Assembly (NCBI GenBank): GCA_947450325.1
Contig: CANFUT010000023.1
Coordinates: forward strand, 1-64,000
Source of the DNA: Flavobacteriia bacterium
Lineage (GTDB): Bacteria > Bacteroidota > Bacteroidia > Flavobacteriales_D > Crocinitomicaceae
DNA length: 64,000 bases
Direction of reading: 5' to 3'
Shown: positions 8,646 through 43,670 of the stretch, piece by piece
Position numbering within the stretch: the stretch's first letter is position 1
Layout: each line of letters begins with the position of its first letter
Translations under genes and position numbers: made by a program
Notes under the pieces: model-generated
Told to the model about the DNA's origin: nothing
Seen by the model: the letters and a program-made list of their open reading frames with translations, nothing else
Databases searched by the model: none

Positions 8646-9464
8646 ATGAACAAATTTTACTTTACGCTTTTTTGTCTATTATCTGTGTTAAATTCCTTCA
8701 GTCAACAAGGGCTTGAAGGTATAATCGTAGAAAAGTATTACGAAACAAGTAACAATGAGTTAGAAGTTTTTGGTTTACCGAAAGGAACAGTGACGTATAG
8801 AATTTATGCAGATTTAAATCCTGATTTCAGATTTCAAGCCGCTTATGGAAATGCAAATCATCCTTTGACAATTTCAACTTCTACCACTTTTTACAATGAT
8901 TTAGAACATGGCGATTTTATTCCAAATACCATTGCGAGACGAAATCTAGGAAAAAAAGCATTGATGTTGGATTCATGGCTCTCTGTTGGAGGTGCAGGTG
9001 AAAAATATTATGGTGTCTTAAAATCTTCTGATGATACTTTGGAAACGATTAAACACCCAAACGGATTATTTGCGGCTAATTCTAAAGAAATCTCGATTCG
9101 CGAAAAAGATGGTTTATTGTCAAGTGAAATTATTCCAAGACCAACCTTTTTTGGAATTGACAGTGCAGTAGCAGTTTTTAAAAATAAGGTAGGCTCTGAA
9201 TTTAAAACAACCAATGGTGCTTGGGCTTATTTAGGCAAAGGATCTGTTGGTGCTGATTCATTAACCAAAAACACAGTTTTAATTGCACAAATTACAACGA
9301 ACGGTGATTTCAATTTCGAATTAAATATTCAAGTTGGTTCAACTAAAACAGGAGAAATACAAAAATATGTTGCCAAAAACCCAATCGGCAACGAAATCTT
9401 GATGCCTCAATTAATCTACTCGAGTTCATCAAAAAAGTCAAAAAAAAATAAACGAAAAAAATAG
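8646..9464 (+). CDS. Secreted paralog A of an unnamed family (EKYY domain), no T9SS domain
   Basis: A 272-aa protein with a signal peptide (FYFTLFCLLSVLNSFSQ). The mature protein starts with GLEGIIVEKYY and shares with the proteins at 9470, 13745 and 18621 the blocks TYRIYADL, ISTSTTFYND, LDSWLSVGG, YGVLKS and NTVLIAQITTNG, all about 250 residues in the same order. I cannot name this domain; it looks beta-rich. Unlike its paralogs it has no C-terminal sorting domain and ends in a lysine-rich tail (SSSKKSKKNKRKK). It is first in a six-gene run and sits 5 bp before its longer paralog. No function is assigned. Confidence 0.75.
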   Translation: MNKFYFTLFCLLSVLNSFSQQGLEGIIVEKYYETSNNELEVFGLPKGTVTYRIYADLNPDFRFQAAYGNANHPLTISTSTTFYNDLEHGDFIPNTIARRNLGKKALMLDSWLSVGGAGEKYYGVLKSSDDTLETIKHPNGLFAANSKEISIREKDGLLSSEIIPRPTFFGIDSAVAVFKNKVGSEFKTTNGAWAYLGKGSVGADSLTKNTVLIAQITTNGDFNFELNIQVGSTKTGEIQKYVAKNPIGNEILMPQLIYSSSSKKSKKNKRKK

Positions 9465-9469
9465 AAATT

Positions 9470-10561
9470 ATGAAAAAAACAATGTTTTTTGCTTGTGTAT
9501 TAGCAAGTTCATTCGCTCACTCACAAGGTCTTGAAGGTGTTGTAGTTGAAAAGTACTATGTATCTGATTTAGCAGATTCTTTAAATGCGGATTTAAATGG
9601 TGCTACCTCTCCATTGAAAGTTGGTTCTGTTACGTACCGCGTTTTTGCTGATTTAGCTGATGGATACAACTTTATTCAAATGTTTGGAAATTCAACACAT
9701 GATTTGAAAATTTCAACAACAACTGATTTTTACAACGATCCAAATAATGGAACTGTTTTCCCTCAAAATACAAGTGTAATTAATACGCGTAAAAATACAA
9801 CTTTAATTGATTCTTGGCTTTCAGTTGGAGGTGTTGCTAGTGGTCAAATGGGTGTTTTGAAATCTGAAGACACAGATGGTTCAATCGGAAACGCGCATGG
9901 AGTTTTAGCAAATGCAGATGCATCAATCGGTTTGCCAATCAATGGAACTGGAGCACAAGATGGATTATTGGCAGGAACTCCTGTAATTCCAAATTCATTG
10001 GGCTTAGGATCTTCAACAGATATTTTTGACCAAACTCCAGGAAATTCATTTGTTTCAAATGGTGGAGCAATTGCAGCTTTAGGTGGTGTGCAAGGTGTTA
10101 CAGCAAGTAATATGGTTTTAATTGGACAATTTACAACGGATGGAGTATTGCATTTTGAGTTGAACATTCAAATTGGTACGCCAACTGCCGGTGGAAGTGA
10201 AACTTATGTAGCGTCAAATCCTACGGCATCAGAATTGACAATTCCTAGTTTGATTTATACATCTCCAGTTTCAAATGTTGGTGTAAATGAAAATACTTTA
10301 GTCAAAGAAAACATTTCAATTTTCCCAAATCCAACAAAAAACGCTTTCAATGTTGTTGTAATTGGACTTAAAGAGCAATCTAACAATGATTTTTACCAAG
10401 TTCAAGATATCAAAGGTGCTGTTTTGAGTAAATCAAATTTGACTGTTGTCAATGGAAAAATTAACCAACAAGTGGATATTTCTTCTTTACCAAGCGGAAT
10501 CTATTTTGTTACGATTTCTGTAGCAGGTAAAAATTCAACTCATAAAATCATTAAAGAGTAA
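9470..10561 (+). CDS. Secreted paralog B of the EKYY family, with T9SS type A sorting domain
   Basis: A 363-aa protein: signal peptide (residues 1-18, ends SFAHSQ), then the EKYY domain (about 20-265; GLEGVVVEKYY, TYRVFADL, TTDFYNDPNNG, LIDSWLSVGG, GVLKSEDTDGS, GAIAALGGV, NMVLIGQFTTDG). A T9SS type A C-terminal domain follows (from about 285; ISIFPNPTKNAFNV, LPSGIYFVTIS, KIIKE). It should cross the outer membrane by the type IX system and be anchored or released at the surface. It is closest to the N-terminal part of the 18621 protein. It is part of the operon from 8646 and lies 39 bp before the TonB-dependent receptor. Confidence 0.8.
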   Translation: MKKTMFFACVLASSFAHSQGLEGVVVEKYYVSDLADSLNADLNGATSPLKVGSVTYRVFADLADGYNFIQMFGNSTHDLKISTTTDFYNDPNNGTVFPQNTSVINTRKNTTLIDSWLSVGGVASGQMGVLKSEDTDGSIGNAHGVLANADASIGLPINGTGAQDGLLAGTPVIPNSLGLGSSTDIFDQTPGNSFVSNGGAIAALGGVQGVTASNMVLIGQFTTDGVLHFELNIQIGTPTAGGSETYVASNPTASELTIPSLIYTSPVSNVGVNENTLVKENISIFPNPTKNAFNVVVIGLKEQSNNDFYQVQDIKGAVLSKSNLTVVNGKINQQVDISSLPSGIYFVTISVAGKNSTHKIIKE

Positions 10562-10600
10562 TCTAAAACTAGAAGATTATTTCATTTCTTATTTCATGTT

Positions 10601-13600
10601 ATGGTTCACAATAACTTTCATCTAAAAACAATAGGATTCAACGTTCTTAGAAATTTCAATTTGTTGAAAATCTCACTTTGCTGTCTACTTTTTATTTTAT
10701 CAAATGAATCTTTAAAAGCACAAGGTTCTCTAACAGGTAAAATTTTTGACGAAAAAGGAGAGCCAGTATACAACGCAAAAGTTTTCAATAAAATTGATAA
10801 ATTAAAAGTGGTTAGATCTGATTTTGAAGGAAATTTTTCTATTGAAATCACAAGTAATCAACCTCAAAATATTTTGATTGCTTTTATTGGATACGATACA
10901 ACTAGTTTGATTGTGAACCCTCTTAAAAATGAAGTTATTGAGAAAAATATAGTTCTGAAAATCGAACAATTGAAAGTCACAACAATAACTGAAGTATCTA
11001 TTGTCGCTCGTCGTTCTAAAGGAAATGATGAATACATGGACAAGAAAAAAGAAAACTCAGCCACTACGATTGATTATATTTCCAGTGAAACAATGAAAAA
11101 CACCGGAGATCAAAATGTTTCTGCTGCAACCTCCAGAGTCTCTGGTGTTTCTTCTAGTGGTGGAATCATAACTGTAAGAGGAATTGGTGATAGATATGTG
11201 AAAACTACTTTAAATGGGTCAAGAATTCCAACGCTTGATCCATTAACAAACAATTTGAAATTAGACATTTTTCCAGCGAGTTTGGTCGACAATGTTATCA
11301 TTACAAAAACAGCAAGTCCTGACTTACCAGGAGATTGGTCTGGTGCTTATTTATCAGTTGAAACTAAAGATTATCCTAACAAATTAAATGTTAGTTGTGA
11401 TTTTCAATTTGGATATAATGCCCAAACTTCATTTAAAGATGTTATCAGCTCACAAAGAAGTCAAACTGATTGGCTTGGTTTTGACAATGGATTCAGAAAT
11501 AGATCTCAGGAAAATATTACAAGTCCCAATCTTAATCCTACATCCTACCAAGAATTGGTTGCATTAGGATTAGGTGATTTTTATTCCAGTTTAGGTGTAA
11601 ATGGATGGATAGATGGTAGTTCGCAAGGTGATATATACTTTAAATTAGGTTTAGTTCAATTGGGATTATTATCAAAAGGATTAATCAATGATCCAGTTGC
11701 ATACAACAACGCCAAGACTGTCTATTTAAATACCTATAAGCCTCAAGCGTTTGAAAATATGAATCCAAACGGATCGAATTACAATAACAACTTATCTAAT
11801 AGTTGGAACACAACCAAACGTAGAGCACCTTTGAATATCTCTCAAAGCTTCAGTGTGGGAGATCAAACCAAGCTTTTTGGTAAGACTTTGGGTTATTTTG
11901 TAGGTTTTAGATATGGTAGTTCAGTGAGATATGATCCAAACGGTATTTCGCAAAGAATTGGTGCTGAAGAGTTAGGCTTTCCTGTTGAGTTTGTTGATAA
12001 TGCTCAGATTAGTAGAGAAACAAATGGTTGGAGTGCATTGGTTAACCTGGCTTATAAGTTGAATACGAGAAACAAATTTTCTTTCTTATTTATGCCCAAT
12101 TTTACAGGGACAAATGATGTTGCAAATTTTTCAACTGTCTACGATAATAGTCCTTCTCAAGAGGGACGAACACAAATAAATCAATTCTATGAACAAAGAA
12201 AGCAAATGATTTATCAAGTGAAATCAGAGCATTTTGTTCCTGGTTCAAAAATGAAAATTGATTTCAATGCTTCTTACACTAAAGGAGCAAGTATTGCGCC
12301 TGACTTTAAAGTCACAAGGTTTGACTTTTTGAAGGAAAATGGTGTAATTACTGATTATGTTTTTTCACCGACTGCAGGTGAAGGAATTAGAAGGTACTTC
12401 AGATATTTAGATGATAATATTTTGGATTCAAGAATTTCTGCTGAACTTCCTTTTGGCGATACTATCAAGAAACTAGTAAGGAAATTAAAATTTGGAGGGT
12501 CATATCAAAGAAATGATAGAAAGTCTGATTTGAATGAGCTTTACTTAGTTGATGGGAATAATTTGAATAAAGCAGAGCTTAATAATGATAATTTGGATGC
12601 TTTTTTAAGTGAAGATAAATTTATAATGTCTGATCAAAAAGTAGATTTTTGCTACAATGAAAGAGATTTTTTCAGAAATCATACATTTGGAAATAGCAGT
12701 GTAACTGCTGGTTTTGTGATGCTGGATTACGAACTTTTGAAGAAATTGCGTTTTTCGGGAGGTGTGAGAGTTGAGCAAGGTAAAGTCTTTACTGATGTGG
12801 TTGAATATTACAACAAAGGTTACAAGAATAATGACCTCAGGAGAGAAAATGTAGGCGGTTTCCCTTTAGTAAACGCTGCCGATAAAAATGAAGTGAATGT
12901 TTTACCAAGTGCTAATTTTATCTATAAACTTATTGATAGCGATACTACCAAATTAAATTTGAGATTTAATTACAGTCAAACTGTTGCTCGCCCAAGTATT
13001 AGAGAGTTAAATGATGCTGCAGTTTATGACAATGAATATAGAACCCTGATTTATGGTAATTCAGATTTGAAATTTGTTCATATCAAAAATTTTGATTTTA
13101 GAGCTGAATCGTATTTTAAAAATGGAGACAATGTTTCTGTTAGTTTATTTTACAAAGATTTTAGAAATCACATAGAATTGGGATTTGGAAGCGCAGGTAT
13201 TACATGGCAAAATATTGATAAATCGAATGTAAAAGGTATTGAAATCGATGTAAACAAAACTCTTTCAAAATACTTTGATTTGAAAGCGAATGTTACTTTA
13301 GTAAAATCAAATTCAATTTTTATCCGCAAAGATTTACAATTGGTAGATGGAGTAAAAGTTTATACGCCAATCGATACAGTTTCGAGACCAATGTTTGGTC
13401 AAGCACCCTACATTGTTAATGCGATTGTAGTTTTTAAGCTAGATTCAATTGGATTGACGACGACATTGAGTTACAATATTCAAGGCCCTAGATTGGCAAT
13501 TACAGGTGTTGTAAAAGGAAGACCTGATGTATACGAAATCCAAAGAAATTCAATTGATTTCAAAATGAGTAAAACAATTGGTAAACATTTTGCGGTGAGT

Positions 13601-13726
13601 TTAACAATAAGAGATCTATTAAACGCTAAAGTTAGAAGAGCCTACAAATTACCGTCAGGATGGCAAGATTTTGACAGTTTCAGATATGGAACGAATTTCG
13701 TAGCCGGAATTTCTTATAAATTATAA
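10601..13726 (+). CDS. TonB-dependent receptor with carboxypeptidase-like N-terminal domain
   Basis: A 1041-aa outer-membrane receptor. The signal sequence ends near residue 40 (SLKAQ) and is followed by a CarboxypepD_reg-like domain (about 43-125; GSLTGKIFDEKGEPVYNAKV). Next is a plug domain (about 150-260; ISSETMKNTGDQNVSAATSR, VRGIGDRY, DNVIITKTASPDLPGDWSG), then a long beta barrel ending in an aromatic strand (NFVAGISYKL). The plug wording (DNV+I.KTASPD.PG) matches the receptor at 30699-33554, so both belong to one subclass. It lies between EKYY-family genes. The imported substrate cannot be told from sequence. Confidence 0.9.
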   Translation: MVHNNFHLKTIGFNVLRNFNLLKISLCCLLFILSNESLKAQGSLTGKIFDEKGEPVYNAKVFNKIDKLKVVRSDFEGNFSIEITSNQPQNILIAFIGYDTTSLIVNPLKNEVIEKNIVLKIEQLKVTTITEVSIVARRSKGNDEYMDKKKENSATTIDYISSETMKNTGDQNVSAATSRVSGVSSSGGIITVRGIGDRYVKTTLNGSRIPTLDPLTNNLKLDIFPASLVDNVIITKTASPDLPGDWSGAYLSVETKDYPNKLNVSCDFQFGYNAQTSFKDVISSQRSQTDWLGFDNGFRNRSQENITSPNLNPTSYQELVALGLGDFYSSLGVNGWIDGSSQGDIYFKLGLVQLGLLSKGLINDPVAYNNAKTVYLNTYKPQAFENMNPNGSNYNNNLSNSWNTTKRRAPLNISQSFSVGDQTKLFGKTLGYFVGFRYGSSVRYDPNGISQRIGAEELGFPVEFVDNAQISRETNGWSALVNLAYKLNTRNKFSFLFMPNFTGTNDVANFSTVYDNSPSQEGRTQINQFYEQRKQMIYQVKSEHFVPGSKMKIDFNASYTKGASIAPDFKVTRFDFLKENGVITDYVFSPTAGEGIRRYFRYLDDNILDSRISAELPFGDTIKKLVRKLKFGGSYQRNDRKSDLNELYLVDGNNLNKAELNNDNLDAFLSEDKFIMSDQKVDFCYNERDFFRNHTFGNSSVTAGFVMLDYELLKKLRFSGGVRVEQGKVFTDVVEYYNKGYKNNDLRRENVGGFPLVNAADKNEVNVLPSANFIYKLIDSDTTKLNLRFNYSQTVARPSIRELNDAAVYDNEYRTLIYGNSDLKFVHIKNFDFRAESYFKNGDNVSVSLFYKDFRNHIELGFGSAGITWQNIDKSNVKGIEIDVNKTLSKYFDLKANVTLVKSNSIFIRKDLQLVDGVKVYTPIDTVSRPMFGQAPYIVNAIVVFKLDSIGLTTTLSYNIQGPRLAITGVVKGRPDVYEIQRNSIDFKMSKTIGKHFAVSLTIRDLLNAKVRRAYKLPSGWQDFDSFRYGTNFVAGISYKL

Positions 13727-13744
13727 TTTTTTAAATATAATCCA

Positions 13745-15079
13745 ATGAATTTCAATAGAATAATAGTGTTGTTTTTTTCGATTTTGAGTTTCAATTCAAT
13801 GTTTGCTCAATTAGAAAAAGTGATTGTTGAGAAATATTACATTTCTGACGACCATGATTCAACTGATACTTTTGGAGGTACTTTAAAATCAGGATCTACA
13901 ACTTACAGGATTTATGTTGATTTAAAGTCAGGAAGTAAATTAATCAAAATGTATGCAGATGCAAACCATAAAGTTGAATTTGCAAGCACTGAAGTATTTT
14001 TTAATCATTTGGCTGATGGTCAATCTTTCGCAAAAGATTTCATTAAAAACAGATATTTAGAAAGTACGATTGCTCTCGATACATGGTTGACTTTGGGTCA
14101 AACCGCTAAAAAGCAGAGTAATAAAACTTATTACGGTATTTTAAAAAACCAAGACGTAGATGGTTCATTTATTGGTGGAGTAAACAATGATGGAGGGAGT
14201 CAATTAATAGCTGGTGGATTATTGATTAACAATGATCCAATGATTGGTTCTCCCTTAACGTTAGCTGATGGAATGGATACAATGAATTTTACACCTGATT
14301 CTTGGTTGGACAATGGTGTGAAGGATTTTTTCTCTGGAAATGATAGTACCATTTTTGGTTCATTGGTTCCAAGTAATGTTTTTTCAAGCAATGATTTCTA
14401 TCTTCAAAACTCAGGAGTAACAGGTGTTGTTCCGGATAGCAATCAAATTTTAGTCGCTCAACTGACAACGTTTGGAGAGCTTTCGTTTGAATTCAATATA
14501 GAAGTGTTGGAGTTAATTGATGGTGTTCCAACGTTAGTTAAATATGTAGCGAATGATTCAATTTTGGCAAATGGTGAAATTTTTAGTCCATTTTTGAAAT
14601 ATCCTTTTGATTGCGGTTGTAACGATGCAAACTATCTCGAATATGACCCTAGTTTCGCTTGTTTAGCTCCTGGTTCTTGTATTACCCCTATTGTGCTTGG
14701 GTGCATGGATCCAATGTCTTGTAATTATGACCCTAATGCCAATGTTTCAGTTACTGAACTGTGCTGCTATCCAGGTTCTTGTGGAGATAGAGATATTGCT
14801 GTGGTTTGTCCTTCTTTGATGGGAGATAAATTTGATTTTGAAATCGCGCCAAATCCAACCAATGATTTCATTACTTTAAACGTTAACTCCGGCTTAGAAA
14901 GTAAAATTACTTACATCGTTTACAATTCATTTGGTGTAATTATAACTCAAAAAGAAACAGCTTCTAATGATTTATTAGTGAACGAGAAAATTGACATGAC
15001 GAATGCAAATGCAGGTTTATATCTGATCAAAGTAGTCGTAGGAAATCAGTTTCAGACTAAACTATTTATGAAAAATTAA
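13745..15079 (+). CDS. Secreted paralog C of the EKYY family with a Cys-rich insert and T9SS domain
   Basis: A 444-aa protein: signal peptide (ends NSMFAQ), a divergent EKYY domain (about 22-285; EKVIVEKYY, TYRIYVDL, LDTWLTLG, YYGILKNQDVDGS, QILVAQLTTFGELSFEFN), then a short Cys-rich segment (about 295-355). That segment has two or more copies of a C.D.NY..YDP / GCMDPMSCNYDPNANV pattern known from surface proteins of marine Bacteroidota. A T9SS type A sorting domain follows (from about 365; FEIAPNPTNDFITLNVN, GLYLIKVVV). It begins 18 bp after the TonB receptor, in the same operon. It is the most diverged of the four paralogs. Confidence 0.75.
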   Translation: MNFNRIIVLFFSILSFNSMFAQLEKVIVEKYYISDDHDSTDTFGGTLKSGSTTYRIYVDLKSGSKLIKMYADANHKVEFASTEVFFNHLADGQSFAKDFIKNRYLESTIALDTWLTLGQTAKKQSNKTYYGILKNQDVDGSFIGGVNNDGGSQLIAGGLLINNDPMIGSPLTLADGMDTMNFTPDSWLDNGVKDFFSGNDSTIFGSLVPSNVFSSNDFYLQNSGVTGVVPDSNQILVAQLTTFGELSFEFNIEVLELIDGVPTLVKYVANDSILANGEIFSPFLKYPFDCGCNDANYLEYDPSFACLAPGSCITPIVLGCMDPMSCNYDPNANVSVTELCCYPGSCGDRDIAVVCPSLMGDKFDFEIAPNPTNDFITLNVNSGLESKITYIVYNSFGVIITQKETASNDLLVNEKIDMTNANAGLYLIKVVVGNQFQTKLFMKN

Positions 15080-15100
15080 TTAATATTTATATTTTGATTT

Positions 15101-15823
15101 ATGAAAAATATGAAATTTAAAATATCATTTTTGATTTTTTCAATAGCTTTTTTAACATTGAATTCTTGTAAGAAAGATGAGGTGAAAGTGAAAGAAAATG
15201 AAACCAGTACCATGACTGATTTAGAAGGAAATGTATATAAAACAGTCAAAATTGGCGATCAGTGGTGGATGGCTGAAAATTTAAAAGTGACAAAATACAA
15301 TGATGGTACTTCGATTAACTATATAGATTCACTGCAAACCGATTCTACTTGGGCAGCTCAGACCGAAGGTGCTTTTTGTAAAACTGATAATCGTTATGGA
15401 ATGTTGTACAATTGGTTTGCGGTGGTTGATACCAGAAAATTAGCTCCAGCTGGGTGGCATATTCCATCAGATGAAGAGTGGAAAACAATGGAGAAATCGA
15501 TTGGAATGTCAACTGAATCTGTAAATCAAACTGCTTGGCGGGGAACAAATGAATGTGAGAAAATAATAACAAAATCTTCAGTAGGTTGGCCTTCAGCATC
15601 AATCGTTTTTGGCACCAATGAAAGTGGGTTTTCAGCTTTGCCAGGTGGTTGCAGACTGTTTAATGGAGAAATTAACAATCAATCAAATTGCGCTTTTTGG
15701 TGGACTTCTTCTCCTGATAATAGTGATGCTTGGTATCGTTATATTGATAGAAATAACAAAAAGATTTTCAGACAACATACCTACCAAAAATATGGCTTGA
15801 GTATTAGATGCGTTAAAGATTAA
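15101..15823 (+). CDS. FISUMP-domain lipoprotein
   Basis: A 240-aa protein with a lipoprotein signal (IAFLTLNSCKK, lipobox Cys near residue 23) and one Fibrobacter succinogenes major paralogous domain (about 40-240). Typical blocks are DLEGNVYKTVKIGDQWWMAE, YGMLYNWFAVVD, APAGWHIPSDEEW, ESGFSALPGG, FWWTSS and GLSIRCVKD. The fold is common in surface lipoproteins of Bacteroidota and is thought to bind ligands or serve as a display scaffold; the specific role is unknown. ATG 15110 is a possible alternative start. It lies 21 bp after paralog C and 10 bp before the barrel gene, within one operon. Confidence 0.85.
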   Translation: MKNMKFKISFLIFSIAFLTLNSCKKDEVKVKENETSTMTDLEGNVYKTVKIGDQWWMAENLKVTKYNDGTSINYIDSLQTDSTWAAQTEGAFCKTDNRYGMLYNWFAVVDTRKLAPAGWHIPSDEEWKTMEKSIGMSTESVNQTAWRGTNECEKIITKSSVGWPSASIVFGTNESGFSALPGGCRLFNGEINNQSNCAFWWTSSPDNSDAWYRYIDRNNKKIFRQHTYQKYGLSIRCVKD

Positions 15824-15833
15824 TTTTAAAAAC

Positions 15834-16505
15834 ATGATAAAAGTATTTTCCTTTTTTATTTTATTGATCGGGCTAACAGCTTTTGGACAGCAAAAAGATA
15901 CATTGAAGTTTAACAATGTTAAGTTGGGTTTGTCTTTGGCTCCAACTTTTTCGTCCCGATATTTGAAGGCTGAAGCAGACGCGCAAGCAAATGCAGATTA
16001 TTTTGATTCTATTGAAATACCTCACCTTGGTTACTCAGTGGGAATCAATTTTGGTTATCAAATTTCTAAGAGATTTTCTTTTAACTCTGGACTTTCCTTT
16101 TCAAATAAGGCGCAAGGTTCGAAATCTGCATCTTTGGAAACCATTTTAGGTTATACAAACAATATTTACTACTTAGATTTACCTTTGAAGTTCAATTATT
16201 ATTTTTTTGCAAAAAAGTCGAAAGTTTATTTAACAGGGGGAGCTAATTTTTCGTACTTCCTTTCCAATCAGATTTCATACAGAAAACAAAATAATAACGA
16301 AATTTTTACAGCAAAAAGCGACGATTTGAATTCTTTTAATGTTGCTGGTATTATTGGAGTAGGATTTGATATTCCTATCTATAAAAGATGGGCATTTAAT
16401 TTTGAGGTAAATTATCAACACGCTTTTACTCCTGTTTTAAATACCCCAATTAAAAGATATTTATATAGTATAAGTCCAACATTGGCTCTTTTTTACAGAT
16501 TTTAG
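15834..16505 (+). CDS. Small outer-membrane beta-barrel protein (PorT-like porin family)
   Basis: A 223-aa protein with a signal peptide (FFILLIGLTAFGQ). Alternating hydrophobic/polar strands are typical of the 8-stranded OMP_b-brl family: VKLGLSLAPTFS, GYSVGINFGYQIS, FSFNSGLSFSN, YYLDLPLKFNYYF, VYLTGGANFSY and a final ISPTLALFYRF. It is the last gene of the operon that starts at 8646 and is followed 47 bp later by a hairpin terminator. A structural or pore role in the outer membrane next to the receptor is likely; nothing indicates a specific ligand. Confidence 0.75.
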   Translation: MIKVFSFFILLIGLTAFGQQKDTLKFNNVKLGLSLAPTFSSRYLKAEADAQANADYFDSIEIPHLGYSVGINFGYQISKRFSFNSGLSFSNKAQGSKSASLETILGYTNNIYYLDLPLKFNYYFFAKKSKVYLTGGANFSYFLSNQISYRKQNNNEIFTAKSDDLNSFNVAGIIGVGFDIPIYKRWAFNFEVNYQHAFTPVLNTPIKRYLYSISPTLALFYRF

Positions 16506-16552
16506 ATATACATGTTTGGATTAACCAAGAAGTCTTAGTTAAACTAAATTGG

Positions 16553-16591
16553 AAGGCATTGCAAATTAATATTTTGTTTATGCCTTTTTTT
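16553..16591 (+). terminator. Rho-independent terminator after the 8.6-16.5 kb operon
   Basis: AAGGCAT (16553-16559) pairs with ATGCCTT (16580-16586) across a 20-nt loop, followed by a run of seven T (16585-16591). The loop is long and AT-rich, so strength is uncertain. Confidence 0.55.
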
Positions 16592-16825
16592 GTTAAGTGT
16601 AATTTATCTTCCAAAAAGCATTGATTTTAAATAGATTTCTAGTTTTGGACATACTTAGTTAACCTTTTGTTCTTTTATTTTTAAAATTCAGCGTAATATA
16701 TTAACTCTTAATTAATATAATACTTGATAAATATTATCTTTTTAGTAATAAAACCTTTAACTTTTTCTAGTGCAAACTATAGATATTTGTACAACTATTT
16801 AATAAAGCATTTAAAAAAGAAAAAA
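16592..16825. other. AT-rich upstream region of the beta-helix gene
   Basis: No ORF or RNA gene is visible. An in-frame TTG at 16724 would give a poor N-terminal extension (34 residues before a clear signal peptide) and is not used. I do not find a convincing TAnnTTTG promoter here. A poly-A-rich leader (16810-16825) directly precedes ATG 16826. Confidence 0.45.
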
Positions 16826-18541
16826 ATGAAAAAAAATCAACATTTTAGAAAAGTTATTGCTGCTGCTACATTAGCGTTGACGGCAATTTCACCAAGCTTC
16901 GCGCAATCAAATTTAGGTTCAGCTTGCGGATGTCCTCCTGTTGCGTCAAGACCAGATGTTTTGTTGTCAAGCTTAACGGGCTTTACCGCAGTGTCAGGAA
17001 CGTACGGAGGAGAATTGACTCAAGGTGCAGTTTTGACTTGTGCAAACAATTATATTATTGACCAAAAAATTTACATTCCTTCTGGAAAAACATTAACAAT
17101 TAATCCAGGTACAGTATTGAAAGGACGTGTTGCTCCTTTTATTAGTGGAACAACAACAGTAGACCCAGCTAAAGCTTCTGCTCTTACTATTGAAAAAGGC
17201 GGAAAAATCATGGCTGAAGGTACTGCAGATTGTCAAATTGTTTTCACTGCTGAGGCAGATCCGATGGATGGTTCTTATGCAATTGCTAACAAAGGAATGT
17301 GGGGTGGAGTTGTTATTCTAGGAAAAGCCACTAATAACCTTACTTTGTCTCCAAATGGACCTTTCGTTGCTGGTGGAGGTGCGAGTGCAGGGAAATTATG
17401 TGTTGCTAATGGTTTAGGAACAATGGAAGGTTTTGCAACATCCAATACCCAAGATCAATTTGGTGTTAATCTTACACTAGGTGAAACTTTTGATGATAAT
17501 GATAATTCTGGAATTCTTAAATATGTTTCCATTAGACATGCAGGTGCTATTTTATCTGTTGGTTCAGAGTTGAATGGTTTATCGTTAGCTTCTGTTGGTA
17601 GAGGTACTACAATTGATCATTTAGAAATTATTTCTAGTGCTGATGACAATATAGAATTTTTCGGAGGTACAGTAAACGTAAGATACGTTGCAGGTCTTTT
17701 TGGAAATGACGACATGTTCGATTACGATTTAGGTTGGTCTGGTAAAGCTCAATTTTTATTTGGTATGAAAACTGATAATACTGCAAGTGTAGACTCAGAT
17801 AATGGTTTTGAAGCAGATTCTGATGATCAAAAATCAAATAATAGCCCAAGATCTATTCCAGTTATTTACAATGCTACAATTGTTGGAAATGACAAAACAG
17901 TTTTAACTTCTGATAACTCTTCTATTGCTGCAATCAATGCGAAAGAATTGACAGGTGGTGAAATTTACAATTCAGTTTTTGCTAACTTCAAAAATGGTTT
18001 TAATATGGTGAAATCTGTTGGTACAAGAACAGGTGGTTATGAAGCTTACCATAACTGGACTAATACAAGTGGCGTTGGTACACCTATTTTGAAAGTAAAA
18101 TGTAATACTTTCGTTGGAGTAACAAATCCAATTACAGTTGGAAGTTCTGCAGCTAGTGTGTTAGCTGTTGATACCGTTCAATTTAAGCAAACAGATATGA
18201 ACACTGTTATCGCTGGAAACACTTTACCTGGTTTTAGCTATGCGTTTACTGTAAATAACAACACAAATACTTTCTCTGTTAAAAATGACTTAGTTCCTAA
18301 TCCAGCATTGTCTGTTTCAGGTTGTCCAGTTCCTCCAGCTGATGGTTTCTTTAGAGCTGCAAACTACAGAGGTGCTTTCGAATCAAACGGTAACAACTGG
18401 TTGTCTGATTGGTCATATACACAAATTTTAGGTGCTACTCAAGGTTTGGTTGCTTGTCCTACAGATATCAACAAAGATGGAATTACAAACATCGATGATT
18501 TCTTGATTTTCGCTCCAGCTTTTGGAACATCTTGTAACTAA
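16826..18541 (+). CDS. Secreted beta-helix-like protein with C-terminal dockerin-like calcium motif
   Basis: A 571-aa protein starting at ATG 16826, where a signal peptide begins (ends AISPSFAQ). The body has repeated strand-turn units typical of right-handed parallel beta-helix proteins: YIPSGKTLTINPGTVLKG, LTIEKGGKIMAEGT, GMWGGVVILGKA, DDNDNSGILKYVSIRHAG and NIEFFGGTVNVRYV. It is clearly paralogous to residues ~50-360 of the protein at 28031-30559. Near the C-terminus come FFRAANYRGAF..WLSDWS and then DINKDGITNIDDFLIFAPAF, an EF-hand-like calcium loop like those of dockerin repeats. No T9SS type A domain is evident. It is followed 79 bp later by the largest EKYY paralog. Confidence 0.75.
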   Translation: MKKNQHFRKVIAAATLALTAISPSFAQSNLGSACGCPPVASRPDVLLSSLTGFTAVSGTYGGELTQGAVLTCANNYIIDQKIYIPSGKTLTINPGTVLKGRVAPFISGTTTVDPAKASALTIEKGGKIMAEGTADCQIVFTAEADPMDGSYAIANKGMWGGVVILGKATNNLTLSPNGPFVAGGGASAGKLCVANGLGTMEGFATSNTQDQFGVNLTLGETFDDNDNSGILKYVSIRHAGAILSVGSELNGLSLASVGRGTTIDHLEIISSADDNIEFFGGTVNVRYVAGLFGNDDMFDYDLGWSGKAQFLFGMKTDNTASVDSDNGFEADSDDQKSNNSPRSIPVIYNATIVGNDKTVLTSDNSSIAAINAKELTGGEIYNSVFANFKNGFNMVKSVGTRTGGYEAYHNWTNTSGVGTPILKVKCNTFVGVTNPITVGSSAASVLAVDTVQFKQTDMNTVIAGNTLPGFSYAFTVNNNTNTFSVKNDLVPNPALSVSGCPVPPADGFFRAANYRGAFESNGNNWLSDWSYTQILGATQGLVACPTDINKDGITNIDDFLIFAPAFGTSCN

Positions 18542-18620
18542 TATTTAATTTAAGGAAAAACAATATTTCGAGGTTATTTAACTTTTGAAATGTTGTTTTT
18601 TCTTTTTAAAAAATAAAGCA

Positions 18621-21029
18621 ATGAAATTTAAAAATATATTTTTAGGACTTGGTTTATCTTTATTGATGAATACAACTTTCGCTCAAGGTGGTCTTGAAGG
18701 AATTGTTGTTGAAAGATATTACCAAACTGATGCTACAGATGGAGCAAATGCCTCTACAAATGGAGCAATCAATGCATTAGCAACGGGTACTGTAGTTTAC
18801 AGAGTCTATGTTGATATGGCTGCAGGATATAAATTCTCTCAATTGTATGGTGCTACAACGCACGATTTTAAGTTGAATACAACTACTAATTTTTACAACG
18901 ATCCAAATAATGGATCTACTACAAATCCAGCTGCAATCAGTTTAACAAATGCAAAGAAAAATACAGTACTTATTGATTCATGGTTTACAACAGGCGGCGT
19001 TTGTGCTGGGAAATCTGGTGTTTTAAAATCTGAAGATTTAGACGGAACAATTGGAAATACACAAGGTGTATTAGCAAATAATCCTGGTTCTTGCTATGGT
19101 GCTCCAATTAATGGTACTAATGCACAAGACGGATTGGTTTCAAGTACTTCTTTGACTGCAGTAAATCCAAATATTTTGGGAATCACTTCAACTCAATTGA
19201 ATTTGTTGGATCAAGGAACTGGAAATAGTTTCTTGTCAAACAATGGTGCAATTGCTGCTTTAGGTGGTATCAAAGGATCGAATGCATCTAACATGGTATT
19301 AGTTGGTCAGTTCACAACGAATGGTGTTCTTTCTTTTGAATTCAATGTTCAATTGATTTCTGCAAATGGAACGGCTGAAAATTGGGTTGCTAGAAACAGA
19401 ACTGGAAGTGAATATACTAGCCCTAGTTTGATTTTTAATTCTACGCCAATTGCAGGAACAGTTTCTGCTGCTGCAAGTATTTGTACAGGAACTTCTAAGA
19501 CATTGACTTTGTCTGGTAATGATGGTGCAATTCAATGGCAAAAATCAACTACTTCTTCAACTCTTGGCTTTACAGATATTTCTGGTGCAAATGCGTCAAC
19601 CTATACTGCTGCTAACGTAACTGTTTCAACATGGTACAGAGCAAAAGTATCGAAGTCTAGTTGTGCTGAAGTATTTACTCCTACTGTAAAATTGACTGTA
19701 ACAACAGTTCCCTCTGTTGGTGGAACAGTGACTGCAGACGCTACAACGATTTGTAAAAACTCTGGAGCTAATTTGACGTTAACAGGTAGTTCAGGAACAA
19801 TTATTTGGCAATATTCTACTACTTGGACTGCTGCAACTCCAACTTGGTATACTGTAACTGGTCAAACTTCAACTACTCTTACTACGGGAGTTTTAACAGC
19901 TTCTAAAGCTTACAGAGCAAAATTAACAAGTGGTTCATGTATTTCTTACTCTAATGAAATGCTGATTACTGTAAATCCAACTTCTACGGTATCTACTATT
20001 TCAGGAGCTGGAACTTTTTGTATTGGAAGTACCGTTAATTTAACTTTGGCTTCAGCTACAGGAACAATTCAATGGCAAGAAGCTCCAAGTACAACAGGTA
20101 CATTTACGGACATTGTTGGTGCAAATGGTTTAGCTTATTCAATCTCAAATCTTCAAAGTACGAAGGCTTATAGAGCTGTTGTTACAAGTGGTGTATGTTC
20201 TTCAATTACGTCAACTGCTGTTACAGTTACTTGTTCTCCATTAGCAGTTGCTGGTACCATTACATCTAATAAAGGTGCAAGTGTTTGTCCAGGTACAAGT
20301 ACATTATTTACTTCTATTGGTTCCACTGGAACAAGACAATGGCAGTCTTCAACAAATGGTGTTGATTTTACTGATATTGCTGCTTCAACAGGCTTGACAA
20401 AATACATCGTTATTTCTTCACCAACTTATGTAAGAGTTAAGTTAACAAGTGGTTCATGTGCAGTAGCTTATTCAAATGTGATTTTCACTGATGTTTTACC
20501 TGCAGCTAATGGCGGATCGATTTCAGGACTAAATTCAGTTGTTGTTAATACTGGAACAACGCTTTCTGTAACTGGTGCTCAAGGAACAATCGCTTGGCAA
20601 AAATCTACAGATGGAGTTACTTTTACTTCAATTACAGGGCAAACTGCTGCAAGTTTGGCAACTGGTAATCTTACGGTTTCAACCTACTATAGAGTAAAAG
20701 CAACTGTTGGAACTTGTTATGTTTATTCTCCTGTTTTCTTGGTAACTGTTAATGCTGCAAGATCAAGTGAAATTGATTTGAATGCTTTTGGAGCTATTGC
20801 TTATCCAAATCCATTTGCTGATAATTTCATGTTAGAAGTAAATGCTTCAACTAATGAGATGATTCAAGTTAATGTATATGATATGTTAGGTAAATTAGTT
20901 GAAAATCACCAAGTGAATGTTTCAGATTTATCAACTTTCGTTATTGGTAATAAATTTGTTTCTGGAGTTTACAACATTGAAGTAATTCAAGGTACTCAAA
21001 TCGAAAGATTAAGAGTTGTTAAGAACTAA
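18621..21029 (+). CDS. Secreted paralog D of the EKYY family: Ig-like repeats and T9SS sorting domain
   Basis: An 802-aa protein from ATG 18621; an upstream TTG at 18585 gives a non-signal N-terminus and is rejected. Order: signal peptide (ends NTTFAQ), EKYY domain (about 22-280; LEGIVVERYY, TYRVY-like VVYRVYVDM, TTNFYNDPNNGS, GVLKSEDLDG, GAIAALGGI, NMVLVGQFTTNG). About five tandem Ig-like repeats of ~85 residues follow (280-720), each with a Cys, a 'G.I.WQ.S' strand and a 'YRAK..SG.C' strand. A T9SS type A domain closes the protein (from about 725; IAYPNPFADNFMLEVN, GVYNIEVIQG). A strong terminator follows. It is probably a large surface adhesin or scaffold. Confidence 0.82.
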   Translation: MKFKNIFLGLGLSLLMNTTFAQGGLEGIVVERYYQTDATDGANASTNGAINALATGTVVYRVYVDMAAGYKFSQLYGATTHDFKLNTTTNFYNDPNNGSTTNPAAISLTNAKKNTVLIDSWFTTGGVCAGKSGVLKSEDLDGTIGNTQGVLANNPGSCYGAPINGTNAQDGLVSSTSLTAVNPNILGITSTQLNLLDQGTGNSFLSNNGAIAALGGIKGSNASNMVLVGQFTTNGVLSFEFNVQLISANGTAENWVARNRTGSEYTSPSLIFNSTPIAGTVSAAASICTGTSKTLTLSGNDGAIQWQKSTTSSTLGFTDISGANASTYTAANVTVSTWYRAKVSKSSCAEVFTPTVKLTVTTVPSVGGTVTADATTICKNSGANLTLTGSSGTIIWQYSTTWTAATPTWYTVTGQTSTTLTTGVLTASKAYRAKLTSGSCISYSNEMLITVNPTSTVSTISGAGTFCIGSTVNLTLASATGTIQWQEAPSTTGTFTDIVGANGLAYSISNLQSTKAYRAVVTSGVCSSITSTAVTVTCSPLAVAGTITSNKGASVCPGTSTLFTSIGSTGTRQWQSSTNGVDFTDIAASTGLTKYIVISSPTYVRVKLTSGSCAVAYSNVIFTDVLPAANGGSISGLNSVVVNTGTTLSVTGAQGTIAWQKSTDGVTFTSITGQTAASLATGNLTVSTYYRVKATVGTCYVYSPVFLVTVNAARSSEIDLNAFGAIAYPNPFADNFMLEVNASTNEMIQVNVYDMLGKLVENHQVNVSDLSTFVIGNKFVSGVYNIEVIQGTQIERLRVVKN

Positions 21030-28030: not shown

Positions 28031-30559
28031 CTATTTTGTCAAAATCAATCTCATGTTTTTTACAGATTTTCCTGTTGTGATAACTGTTGAATACAATCCA
28101 GAAGTTAAATCAGTCGTATTTAATTTTACAATGTTTTCACCTGAATTCATAAATCCAGAGAATCCTTCAGAAACCAATTTTCCAGTTACATCATAAATAT
28201 TAACGGTAACTTCTGTTGATTCATTCAAATACACACCAACGTTTACTTCATTTTGAGCTGGATTTGGATAAAGTATTGCTTGTCCAATAGTTTCCAATTC
28301 TTCAATTCCAGCAGATAAAACCACTGTCAAATGAGTTGTATCTGAACAGTTGCCATTTGTAGCTGTAAGAACAACTGTATAGGTTCCGTTTCCTGCAAAT
28401 GCATGTACAGGATTTGAAGCAGATGAATTTGTTTGATCACCGAAATCCCAAGAATATGTTGTCGCTCCAGAAGAAGTGTTTGTGAATGTAACAACAGTTC
28501 CACTAGTTGTAAATGATGCAACTGCTGCAGGTACTGCGCCAAATGTCAATGTAATAGGAGTAGAAGTCCCAACTCCATTACAAGCATTTGTGTTAGTTGT
28601 TACAACTGTAAATGTTCCGTCAGCTGTCACATCAATTGTTTGAGTTGTAGCACCATTTGACCACAAGTATGTATCAGCAGTACTAGAAGTTAAAGTGATT
28701 GTTTCACCTTGGCAAGCAGATGTTGTTGTTGAAGCAATAGTTGGAACTGGTGAATTGCTAACGCTCACATTTACTGCATTAGAAGTTGATGAACAACCAT
28801 CATTATTGGTAACAGTTACTGTGTATGTTCCAGTTGTTGTTACGACGATGTCTTGAGAGGTTAATGTATTTGACCAAACGTTTCCTGTTGTTGCGCTTGA
28901 GCTTAAAGTTACAGATCCTCCTGTACAGAAAGATGTTGCACCACTTGCAGAAATTGTAGGAATGGCTGGCAAAGCATTTACTACAACTGTGATCAGAGAT
29001 CTTGGACTTTCGTCACCAACTGTATTGTTTTGAGATACATAATACATATAAGTTCCTGCTGCACTTGTACTTGGTACTGGCGCAGATGTTACAGCCGTTC
29101 CGCCAGTTGCTTGTGTGTACCATTTAAAAGTATTTCCAACTTCACCATTTGCAGTTAATGCTGTTGCAGTAGCTCCTTGACAATATGTTACCGAAGCAGT
29201 AACAGTTGGTGCATCTAAATTGAAGAATTTTGGATTTGTAAAATCTGCGCCTGATGCTGCAGTTGAACTTGAACTTAATCTTGCATCTGGAGTAGTTCCC
29301 AAACTTGGAAATAAATTAACCCAATTGATTTGAGCAATTGTTTTAGTCGAATCATTGTTTTCAGAGCCAAAGAAAGTTGCATAAAAAGCACTAGAAGCAG
29401 AACCGACATTTGAACCAACAGGAAGATTTACTAATTCATTGTTTGAAAAGTAAGCAGAATCACCAGTAATATTGTCTTCTGTTGATGTACCTTCAAATGA
29501 AGCTCCTTTTTCCCATCCTGTAATCAATGTGTTAAAAACTGAAATTGAAGAATTTCTTCTAATTCTGAATGCTTTTTCAAATTTCTCACCAGTTGGGAGA
29601 GAGATAGTTCCATCTCCTTTTGCACCAACAGTTGTGATGTTAGAGAAAATTGCAGCTGTTAATGGCTGTGAGTTTGACCCTGTTGCATCATTGTCAGATT
29701 CTAATGAATTTGAATCTCCAGCAGCATCAGAAAGGTCTTTGTCTCTAATAATTAATCCAAACTGAATTTTACCTCTGTAACCAAAATCGGTGTCAAAATC
29801 GTCATCTAATCCTCTATAAGCGATTAAGTGTTTGCAATTTACTGTTCCACCAAACCATTCGTAAGAATCATCACCTGAAAAAGATACTTGGCAATAGTCT
29901 ACAAATGTTCCTGAGCCTACAGAACCAAACGTGATCCCGTTAATTTCTTTGTTTGGTTGTAAAGGAATACCCGCAAATTCAACTCTTACATATTTTAAAG
30001 ATCCCGAATTGTCATCATCAAAATTCCCTCCAAACTGAGTATCAGTCGTTGGAGCAATTCCTTCGATGTTTGCAACACCTCCAGGTTGGTTGTTTTTTGC
30101 TAAACCTAAAAGCACCAATCCACCCCAGTCTCCTTCATTTCTGTTTCCAACGGCTTCACTAGAAGTGAAAATTATTGGATTAGAGCTAGTTCCTTCAGCA
30201 ATTATTTTAGCGCCTCTTGTAATAATCAATGTTCCTTGAGTCAATTTATCACCTCTGATAATCGTTCCTGGTAAAATTGTCAATGTGGCGTTGTTTTTTA
30301 CATAAATTTTATTTTGTAATAAAATCACTCCACTCCAAGTTGTACTGCTCGTTATATCTGCAGAAACTGTTGTCGTTGTTGCAGGATAAACTGTGTTTTC
30401 AGGGTCAAAATTTGACCATCCACTCGTCCAATCAGTTGCTGGCGTATTATCTGTTACTGGAAACGCACCTTTGTAATTAGTAGGTGTCCAAAATGCTTGT
30501 TGCGCACTCAATAATGAGCAAACAAAAAGTGAAGCAAAACTCAAATAAATATTCTTCAT
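28031..30559 (-). CDS. Secreted beta-helix protein with Ig/PKD repeats and T9SS sorting domain
   Basis: An 842-aa protein. Order: signal peptide (ends SLLSAQ), then a motif FWTPTNYKGAF..DWTSGWS (about 22-52) and a beta-helix-like region (about 65-365; ATLTILPGTIIRGDKLTQGT, GDWGGLVLLGLAKN, DDDNSGSLKYVRVEFAG, SYEWFGGTVNCKHL). Ig-like repeats follow (about 450-680; CQGATATALTANGEV, CTGGSVTLSSSATTG, CQGETITLTSSTADT), then a PKD domain (about 685-760; YSWDFGDQTNSSASNP) and a T9SS type A domain (from about 768; AILYPNPAQNEVNVGV, SGLYSTVITTG). It is paralogous in the helix region to the 16826 protein. It lies 139 bp downstream of a TonB receptor on the same strand. Confidence 0.82.
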   Translation of the reverse strand: MKNIYLSFASLFVCSLLSAQQAFWTPTNYKGAFPVTDNTPATDWTSGWSNFDPENTVYPATTTTVSADITSSTTWSGVILLQNKIYVKNNATLTILPGTIIRGDKLTQGTLIITRGAKIIAEGTSSNPIIFTSSEAVGNRNEGDWGGLVLLGLAKNNQPGGVANIEGIAPTTDTQFGGNFDDDNSGSLKYVRVEFAGIPLQPNKEINGITFGSVGSGTFVDYCQVSFSGDDSYEWFGGTVNCKHLIAYRGLDDDFDTDFGYRGKIQFGLIIRDKDLSDAAGDSNSLESDNDATGSNSQPLTAAIFSNITTVGAKGDGTISLPTGEKFEKAFRIRRNSSISVFNTLITGWEKGASFEGTSTEDNITGDSAYFSNNELVNLPVGSNVGSASSAFYATFFGSENNDSTKTIAQINWVNLFPSLGTTPDARLSSSSTAASGADFTNPKFFNLDAPTVTASVTYCQGATATALTANGEVGNTFKWYTQATGGTAVTSAPVPSTSAAGTYMYYVSQNNTVGDESPRSLITVVVNALPAIPTISASGATSFCTGGSVTLSSSATTGNVWSNTLTSQDIVVTTTGTYTVTVTNNDGCSSTSNAVNVSVSNSPVPTIASTTTSACQGETITLTSSTADTYLWSNGATTQTIDVTADGTFTVVTTNTNACNGVGTSTPITLTFGAVPAAVASFTTSGTVVTFTNTSSGATTYSWDFGDQTNSSASNPVHAFAGNGTYTVVLTATNGNCSDTTHLTVVLSAGIEELETIGQAILYPNPAQNEVNVGVYLNESTEVTVNIYDVTGKLVSEGFSGFMNSGENIVKLNTTDLTSGLYSTVITTGKSVKNMRLILTK

Positions 30560-30698
30560 AATTTCTTAATATTGTATGATGCAAAGTAAAGCACTCGACC
30601 TTGTCTTAAAATTAACGTATTATTACAGATACTTTACAATTATGTTAATCAAATGTTATTGATTTTTTATATTATTTACTTTATGTTAATATTGATAT

Positions 30699-39395: not shown

Positions 39396-39413
39396 CCTTA
39401 AGAATTCGAAATT

Positions 39414-43643: not shown

Positions 43644-43670
43644 TCTTATTCATTTCAATAGTATAGAAGA

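What the first reader, a model, noticed from the sequence alone, without database searches (positions are those of the whole stretch)
8646..21029. Locus with four paralogs of an unnamed secreted domain around a TonB receptor and a beta-helix protein
Seen: four proteins (8646, 9470, 13745, 18621) share a ~250-residue domain with ordered blocks (VEKYY, TYR+Y.DL, TT.FYND, DSWLSVGG, GVLKSED, GAIAALGG, NMVLIGQFTT). They differ in what follows: a Lys tail, a T9SS domain, a Cys-rich insert plus T9SS, or five Ig repeats plus T9SS. They interleave with a TonB receptor, a FISUMP lipoprotein, a small barrel and a beta-helix protein; the first six genes have gaps of only 5-39 bp. Inference: a multi-component surface apparatus for capture and uptake or adhesion, made by tandem duplication of one module with varied anchors.
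Basis: partly seen in the sequence, partly recalled or inferred. Interest (0 to 1): 0.75.

Follow-up and report, generated by a model that had tools for sequence, protein, structure and literature searches.

The report
TonB surface locus with dockerin-like tail
Some Bacteroidota bacteria carry a fixed set of eight genes that appears to build a capture device on the cell surface around one importer, using a previously unnamed protein module in four versions and a partner protein with a plug-like tail known from cellulose-digesting machines.

Summary
Four proteins share a ~245-residue domain (call it D) with no Pfam, NCBIfam or convincing PDB sequence match. The host genome has four copies, all here. 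The locus is a conserved unit: of 399 genomes of the order, 68 have strong D matches and 70 this TonB receptor; 67 have both. In loci fetched through D, D lies directly upstream of the receptor in 53 of 53 scorable cases and directly downstream in 50 of 50. The paralogs sort mainly by position in the locus.
New finding: the beta-helix protein W7 ends in a calcium-loop tail whose profile matches a crystallised dockerin (2y3n_B, E 8.8e-9). D is confidently modelled (pLDDT 96.9); cohesins are frequent among its weak fold matches (Z 3.7-5.0). In 55 hand-chosen genomes all 34 with D carry the tail and 1 of 21 without D does. Both expand together in one sister family.
Best reading: a T9SS-displayed, TonB-linked surface assembly in which D may be the receptor for dockerin-like tails. 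Linkage is shown; D-tail binding, substrate and uptake are inferred.

The parts
8646..9464 (+). W1: signal peptide + D domain (8709-9419) + short Lys-rich tail; no T9SS tail
   Evidence: W1-type relatives: 46 of 51 have a tail of <=30 aa, 31 of 51 a short tail with >=4 Lys/Arg
9470..10561 (+). W2: D domain (9527-10258) + T9SS type A tail
   Evidence: W2-type relatives with T9SS tail 52 of 53
10601..13726 (+). W3: TonB-dependent outer-membrane receptor (CarboxypepD_reg-like domain, plug, barrel)
13745..15079 (+). W4: D domain (13808-14602) + Cys-rich repeat + T9SS type A tail
   Evidence: relatives: 47 of 50 with >=8 Cys in the tail, 47 of 50 with T9SS tail
15101..15823 (+). W5: FISUMP lipoprotein; N-terminus after the lipid Cys fits C-X-K-(D/E)2-X, the lipoprotein export signal of PMC5080379
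   Evidence: 9 of 23 rows scored, of 24, fit strictly
15834..16505 (+). W6: small outer-membrane beta-barrel
   Evidence: OMP_b-brl_2 E 1.2e-16; weak PorG resemblance far below cut-off
16826..18541 (+). W7: secreted beta-helix protein without T9SS type A tail
   Evidence: (no family of note)
18431..18538 (+). Dockerin-like C-terminal tail of W7: one Ca-loop (F-hand) repeat between two Cys
   Evidence: present in 38 of 41 W7 ORFs of named loci, the other 3 end mid-protein
18621..21029 (+). W8: D domain (18690-19436) + five Ig-like repeats + T9SS type A tail
   Evidence: W8-type relatives with T9SS tail 13 of 37, 20 of the 37 being cut at a locus end

Best explanation
A conserved outer-surface capture-and-uptake assembly. 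W3 is the outer-membrane importer. D proteins W2, W4 and W8 are exported and anchored by the type IX system and stand around it as receptors; W1 is a D protein without a known anchor. W5 is a surface lipoprotein and W6 a small barrel. W7 is a beta-helix ligand-binding or processing protein that carries a calcium-dependent dockerin-like tail, and the D domains are its docking receptors, so W7 (and, in some relatives, a further large protein with the same tail) is held next to the importer. Shown: fixed composition, order and co-inheritance; T9SS tails; the tail's dockerin resemblance; co-occurrence and co-expansion of D and tail in the genomes tested. Inferred: that D binds the tail, that W3 imports a product, and what the ligand is (a polymer such as a polysaccharide is a guess from the beta-helix fold).
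For: Unit: strong D in 68, W3 type in 70, both in 67 of 399 genomes; synteny 53/53, 50/50, 51/52, FISUMP 46/47, D after W7 38/38 (loci fetched through D). Positional orthology: 5 label changes against 42.4 shuffled, 76 of 192 rows used. Tail: profile A9 hits dockerin 2y3n_B, E 8.8e-9, two repeats; the whole W7 profile's only PDB hit at E<=1 is the same chain; a two-repeat tail of a relative passes Pfam Dockerin_1 (24.0 bits, cut-off 22.9). D: pLDDT 96.9; by their titles 15 of 50 Foldseek rows and 21 of 50 VIA rows shown are cohesins. Tail in 8 of 8 D+ and 0 of 10 D- genomes of the window's family at E 0.01, one site each except two in G027, whose second site is at a contig start beside its W8: the tail's partner is then probably in the locus. 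D and tail counts in 24 f9 genomes: rho 0.76. In three relatives a large protein inserted beside W7 is seen whole or in part; the two seen to the C-terminus end in a tandem double tail, and one has a calcineurin-like phosphoesterase domain. Of 20 tailed proteins scanned, some hold endonuclease I, starch-binding or dehydrogenase domains.
Against: No binding was tested. D has no sequence match to cohesins (49 long-form and 8 short-form members); no Foldseek hit is significant, and Z of 4-5 can mean only a common beta-sandwich; the top four VIA rows are Als adhesins (Z 5.2-5.7). W7 has a single repeat, where dockerins have two; after 2y3n_B the tail's PDB matches are weak (next E 0.0066) and soon include ordinary EF-hands such as S100-A8 (E 0.031). 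AlphaFold gives the tail low confidence. W7 lacks a T9SS tail, so its export is unexplained. D-tail closeness in the genome is enriched in G053 (11 of 19 D clusters within 10 kb, p 0.0007) but not in G467 (4 of 13, p 0.37). The 55 genomes were chosen by hand; co-expansion is seen in one family and may reflect ancestry or secretome size. Three W3-type genomes lack strong D (G653 and G667 have weak D; G684 none at 1e-10), and G501 has D without W3.
Confidence: 0.45

Rival explanations
1. The dockerin-like tail is a C-terminal sorting or anchoring signal read by an export machine, not by D; D is an independent lectin-like or structural domain of T9SS surface proteins.
For: The tail sits 0-3 residues from the C-terminus in 41 of 44 listed ORFs, and no ORF examined had both the tail and a T9SS tail, judged with a home-made three-sequence T9SS profile, as an alternative signal would. 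f9 genomes have up to 81 tails. D-tail closeness is not enriched in G467.
Against: In the window's family the tail is absent from the 10 D- genomes and confined to the locus where its place was seen, so a general machine is less likely there; two-repeat versions reach Pfam Dockerin_1, and f9 has D and tail together in one protein.
Confidence: 0.3
2. An adhesion or matrix apparatus: D proteins are stalked adhesins (Als- or Sdr-like sandwich), W7 an adhesive beta-helix, and W3 only an assembly or energy-coupled partner, with no nutrient uptake.
For: Best fold rows for D are Candida Als adhesins (Z 5.2-5.7); W8-type tails vary greatly in length (0-1181 aa, many cut by locus ends); W7 Foldseek rows include the adhesin PfbA.
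Against: The receptor W3 is present in 67 of the 68 strong-D genomes and receptors of this class normally import (general knowledge); Z values are low.
Confidence: 0.25
3. A Sus-like system for a polysaccharide in which D replaces SusD and the surface glycan-binding proteins, and docking plays no part.
For: TonB receptor with SusC-like N-terminal domain, surface-type lipoprotein W5, beta-helix nearest to pectate lyase Pel9A (Foldseek E 4.4e-4).
Against: No SusD and no glycoside hydrolase or sulfatase family among W1-W8; W3 is not listed for the SusC/RagA model at E<=1.
Confidence: 0.2

Closest known systems
Cohesin-dockerin assemblies (cellulosomes and non-cellulosomal pairs)
   Same: C-terminal Ca-loop tail with detectable dockerin similarity; multi-copy beta-sandwich partner candidates on anchored proteins; enzymes and binding modules among tailed proteins of relatives
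   Different: D has no cohesin sequence match; the W7 tail is one Cys-flanked repeat; anchoring is by T9SS in a Gram-negative; linked to a TonB importer
Dockerin-bearing Bacteroidetes bins of rumen metagenomes (PMC6071333, passages)
   Same: Dockerins in Bacteroidetes; one tabulated bin (Bin49) has 11 dockerins and 0 cohesins, i.e. no known receptor
   Different: Other lineage and habitat; no D domain or locus described in the passages seen
Sus-like / BtuB-BtuG-BtuH systems of Bacteroidota (PMC10404256, PMC6143338, PMC8941943; search listing only)
   Same: TonB importer with surface-exposed partner proteins that capture the ligand
   Different: Partners here are T9SS cargo with a new domain, not SusD or BtuG lipoproteins
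T9SS type A cargo (TIGR04183)
   Same: W2, W4, W8 carry the sorting domain
   Different: W1 and W7 do not
FISUMP lipoproteins (TIGR02145/PF09603)
   Same: W5 is a full-length member
   Different: placed after W4 in this locus in 46 of 47 scored relatives

Membership tests
Dockerin (Pfam PF00404) | Ca-binding F-hand loop D-x-N/D-x-D-G-x-x-x-x-x-D (pattern recalled) | tested here: met
   Invariant D12, D16, G17, D23 in A9; match to dockerin 2y3n_B
Dockerin (Pfam PF00404) | Two tandem repeats | tested here: not met
   W7 has one repeat; relatives' proteins L113 and L120 have two, and 60 matches in G053 merge to 50 sites, i.e. about 10 close pairs
Dockerin (Pfam PF00404) | Pfam gathering score | tested here: not met
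   W7 no Pfam match at E<=1; tail of L203 passes (24.0 against 22.9), L200 just misses (22.6)
Dockerin (Pfam PF00404) | Binds a cohesin | not testable with these tools
   needs a binding assay
Cohesin | Sequence match to a cohesin model | tested here: not met
   0 of 49 long-form members at E 0.1; 0 of 8 short-form members at E 1
Cohesin | Cohesin jelly-roll fold | tested here: inconclusive
   Cohesins, by title, 15 of 50 Foldseek rows (best E 0.25) and 21 of 50 VIA rows (Z 3.7-5.0, 111-129 of 244 residues)
Cohesin | Binds a dockerin | not testable with these tools
   needs a binding assay
SusCD/RagAB system | SusC/RagA-family receptor | tested here: not met
   TIGR04056 not listed for W3 at E<=1; PDB matches to SusC/RagA confined to the N-terminal part
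SusCD/RagAB system | SusD/RagB lipoprotein partner | tested here: not met
   No SusD family among W1-W8
T9SS type A cargo | TIGR04183 C-terminal domain | tested here: met
   W2, W4, W8 above cut-off; W1 and W7 not matched
FISUMP lipoprotein | TIGR02145 / PF09603 domain | tested here: met
   122.4 bits against 41.65; 157.2 against 33.9

The most novel reading that the evidence does not exclude
D is a new family of cohesin-like docking receptors, and the Cys-flanked F-hand tail is its dockerin: a cohesin-dockerin-type assembly of Gram-negative Bacteroidota, anchored by the type IX system, used in one locus around a TonB importer in the window's family and expanded to dozens of D domains and dozens of tailed proteins in a sister family. 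It would also offer a kind of receptor for Bacteroidota dockerins that have no known cohesin.
Probability: 0.35. Interest if true: 0.87.

Novelty: new variant of a known kind. Interest (0 to 1): 0.68.

Why it matters
It gives a domain family absent from Pfam and NCBIfam as tested, a fixed genomic context and a specific, cheap binding test. If D binds the tail, plug-and-socket assembly of surface proteins, known best from clostridial cellulosomes, would also exist on the type IX secreted surface of Bacteroidota, and dockerin-like tails there, reported before without cohesins in at least one rumen bin (PMC6071333), would have a candidate type of receptor. Even without docking, the locus is a conserved TonB-centred surface system of unknown substrate.

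Tried and rejected
Chance similarity of the four domains: rejected. Recent tandem copies: rejected by the tree. Known Pfam, NCBIfam or PDB family for D: none of note; the two PDB rows (CHMP1B, E 0.22 and 0.28) and five single-member Pfam rows (best E 0.0096) were taken as noise. Viral structure library for D: nothing at E 0.001. Sigma-70 promoter scan (55 found, 54.3 expected), terminator scan (7, 6.2 expected) and TAnnTTTG (85, 94.3 expected) were uninformative, so transcription units rest on gene spacing. GC of the locus is within the range of the window. Paper searches: no listed title or abstract start described this locus or a T9SS cohesin-dockerin pair; beyond listings I saw only passages of PMC5080379, PMC2930009, PMC5831590 and PMC6071333. 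[quoted passage not shown] So dockerins in this phylum are not new in themselves. The review by Peer et al. 2009 on non-cellulosomal cohesin and dockerin modules is known to me only from the reference list and from recall; it was not held. Not done for lack of searches: canonical cohesins (PF00963) in the f9 genomes, the empty site in G003, T9SS tail counts as a control for the co-expansion, and the place of the second tail match of G032.
Full report
WHAT WAS CHECKED. The eight genes W1-W8 (8646-21029) exist as described. W1, W2, W4 and W8 share domain D. A profile search of the host genome (3.44 Mb, 42 contigs) finds four D copies at E up to 1, all here. D has no Pfam or NCBIfam match in the window proteins, none credible in 49 long-form relatives, and no PDB sequence match of note.

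DISTRIBUTION. With a 49-row D profile at E 1e-10, 3 of 395 genomes drawn across the phylum match (all three also lie in the window's order) and 147 of 399 of the order. In the latter 68 have best E below 1e-50 (38 in the window's family f1, 28 in f9, 1 each in f4 and f8; counted by hand from the listing), and 79, all f9, have only weak best E (1e-10 to 1e-16) through a shorter form. Within f1 the locus is patchy even inside a genus (G000, G001, G004 have it; G003, 99% complete, has no match). Titles of the named relatives fetched mostly say Flavobacteriales or Bacteroidetes.

A FIXED UNIT. In the same 399 genomes the W3-type receptor (E 1e-180) is in 70 and W7-type proteins (E 1e-80) in 68. 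Strong D and W3 share 67; D without W3: G501; W3 without strong D: G653, G667 (both with weak D), G684. Strong D and W7 share 58; 10 D genomes lack a W7 match and 10 W7 genomes, all f9, lack strong D; I did not check how many misses are contig ends. In the 70 named loci fetched through D, among W3 ORFs with a neighbour present, D is directly upstream in 53 of 53 and directly downstream in 50 of 50; a second D upstream 51 of 52; FISUMP next 46 of 47; recognisable barrel next 34 of 46; D after W7 38 of 38. Fetching through D biases these counts upward; the 399-genome test does not have that bias. More distant relatives (L041, L042, L043) keep W3 followed by D but have extra D genes, and no FISUMP or barrel was recognised next to it. 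A quick tree of 76 of 192 domains needs 5 changes of position label against a shuffled mean of 42.4 and a minimum of 3; W4-type is one side of a well-supported branch, W1-type of a branch with support 83, W2 and W8 need 3 and 4 changes.

PARTS. W2-type have a T9SS tail in 52 of 53; W4-type have at least 8 tail Cys in 47 of 50; W1-type lack a T9SS tail in 50 of 51; W8-type have one in 13 of 37, of which 20 ORFs are cut at a locus end, so 13 of 17 uncut. 31 of 51 W1-type have a short tail with at least 4 Lys/Arg, so the Lys tail is common but not universal. W5's first residues after the lipid Cys fit C-X-K-(D/E)2-X, shown in PMC5080379 (passages) to be the optimal signal for sending a lipoprotein to the surface of Capnocytophaga; 9 of 23 rows scored fit strictly (of 24 rows; one row was not scored and one was scored at a wrong Cys). 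W3 resembles SusC/RagA in PDB only at its N-terminal part. W7 models as a beta-helix (pLDDT 80.9), nearest to pectate lyase Pel9A (E 4.4e-4); no catalytic residues were tested.

THE TAIL. The last 36 residues of W7 hold the main new clue: in 20 aligned tails G5, C9, T11, D12, D16, G17, T19, D23, F24, F31 and C35 never vary. The tail profile's best PDB match is the dockerin of a cellulosomal GH48 enzyme (2y3n_B, E 8.8e-9, both repeats aligned); the next are other cellulosomal proteins at E 0.007-0.03 and then ordinary EF-hands from E 0.031. The full W7 profile finds only 2y3n_B (E 0.0011). 38 of 41 W7 ORFs of named loci have the tail; the other three end mid-protein. In 26 hand-chosen genomes at E 0.1, all 9 f1 genomes with D have it (one match, two in G027 and G032; the second of G032 was not located), 11 of 12 f1 genomes without D have none (G015 one at E 0.097), 4 f9 genomes have 44-68, and G038 (f4) has 2. 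In 55 hand-chosen genomes at E 0.01, tails occur in 34 of 34 genomes with D and 1 of 21 without (G037, E 0.0017); this set overlaps, and the Fisher p-values ignore ancestry. In f1 the tail is part of the locus, so there the test shows mainly that these genomes have no use for it elsewhere.

CO-EXPANSION IN F9. Sister family f9 has a ~200-residue short form of D that lacks most of the long form's middle (A10): 6-43 matches per genome and 1-81 tails, rank correlation 0.76 over 24 genomes. D match counts mix whole domains and split long forms. D and tail occur in one protein (L172, L175, L186, L192) or in neighbouring genes (L176, L190, L174). The closeness test, which counts the same protein too, is mixed: G053 4, 6 and 11 of 19 D clusters within 2.5, 5 and 10 kb of a tail (p 0.034, 0.024, 0.0007); G467 3, 3 and 4 of 13 (p 0.08, 0.29, 0.37). 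The 60 tail matches of G053 merge to 50 sites, so about 10 are close pairs, and one two-repeat tail passes Pfam Dockerin_1. Of 20 tailed proteins scanned (42 ORFs were at hand, held only to about 530 residues each), 9 had no Pfam family at E 0.001; the rest include endonuclease I, CBM48/CBM20, glucose/sorbosone dehydrogenase, plastocyanin-like, lamin-tail and repeat domains.

AN ADDED TAILED PROTEIN IN THE LOCUS. In L113 (2194 aa) and L120 (1358 aa, cut at its start) a large protein lies just before W7; L114 holds a partial homolog, and L083 is the same contig as L113. Both C-termini carry two tandem tail repeats, and L113 holds a calcineurin-like phosphoesterase domain (38.3 bits, cut-off 21.5). 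An unrelated protein that joined the locus with a double dockerin-like tail is what docking predicts, though a shared sorting signal predicts it too.

FOLD OF D. AlphaFold on 141 sequences gives pLDDT 96.9, pTM 0.93. No Foldseek hit is significant; the first row is a type II cohesin (E 0.25) and 15 of the 50 rows shown are cohesins by title. VIA: four Als adhesin rows at Z 5.2-5.7, then cohesins at Z up to 5.0, 21 of 50 rows. The tool warns that Z under 8 may be only a common arrangement. I therefore call D cohesin-like in arrangement, not a cohesin.

PRIOR WORK. Dockerins in Bacteroidetes are not new: PMC6071333 (passages) tabulates a Bacteroidetes rumen bin with 11 dockerins and 0 cohesins and cites other rumen reports. 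What I did not see in the listings of ten searches is D, this locus, or a receptor proposed for such tails.

VERDICT. The conserved, TonB-centred, T9SS-displayed eight-gene system and the new domain are solid. That D is the socket for the dockerin-like tail is a specific, unproven and testable reading; the main rival is that the tail is a sorting signal in its own right. Substrate and the role of W3 (uptake or other) are unknown.

Noticed in passing
28031-33554 (- strand): A second TonB receptor and T9SS beta-helix pair, distant relatives of W3 and W7. In relatives L128 and L135 homologs of this pair lie directly upstream of the D locus.
   Followed up: partly
35631-44738: Large plausible TonB-type receptor (read from sequence; only a weak NCBIfam match), a 1409-aa protein with T9SS tail and a PorV/PorQ family protein in a row.
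   Followed up: no
L113:1064-7645, L120:3-4076: Large proteins inserted beside W7 with tandem double dockerin-like tails; one has a calcineurin-like phosphoesterase domain.
   Followed up: partly
G467:C2 about 734-828 kb and 2.74-2.77 Mb (among them loci L197, L209-L219, odd numbers): Clusters of large proteins with very similar or identical dockerin-like tails spaced a few kb apart.
   Followed up: no
G553, G499: Several short-form D domains in single open frames of more than 3,600 codons; 43 and 37 matches per genome.
   Followed up: no
record titles: Several MAG records with the locus bear unlikely names (Actinomyces viscosus, Candidatus Kuenenia stuttgartiensis, Chryseobacterium gleum), probably mislabelled bins.
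   Followed up: no
8646-9464: The Lys-rich tail of W1 recurs in 31 of 51 relatives but is lost in others; its role is unexplained.
   Followed up: partly
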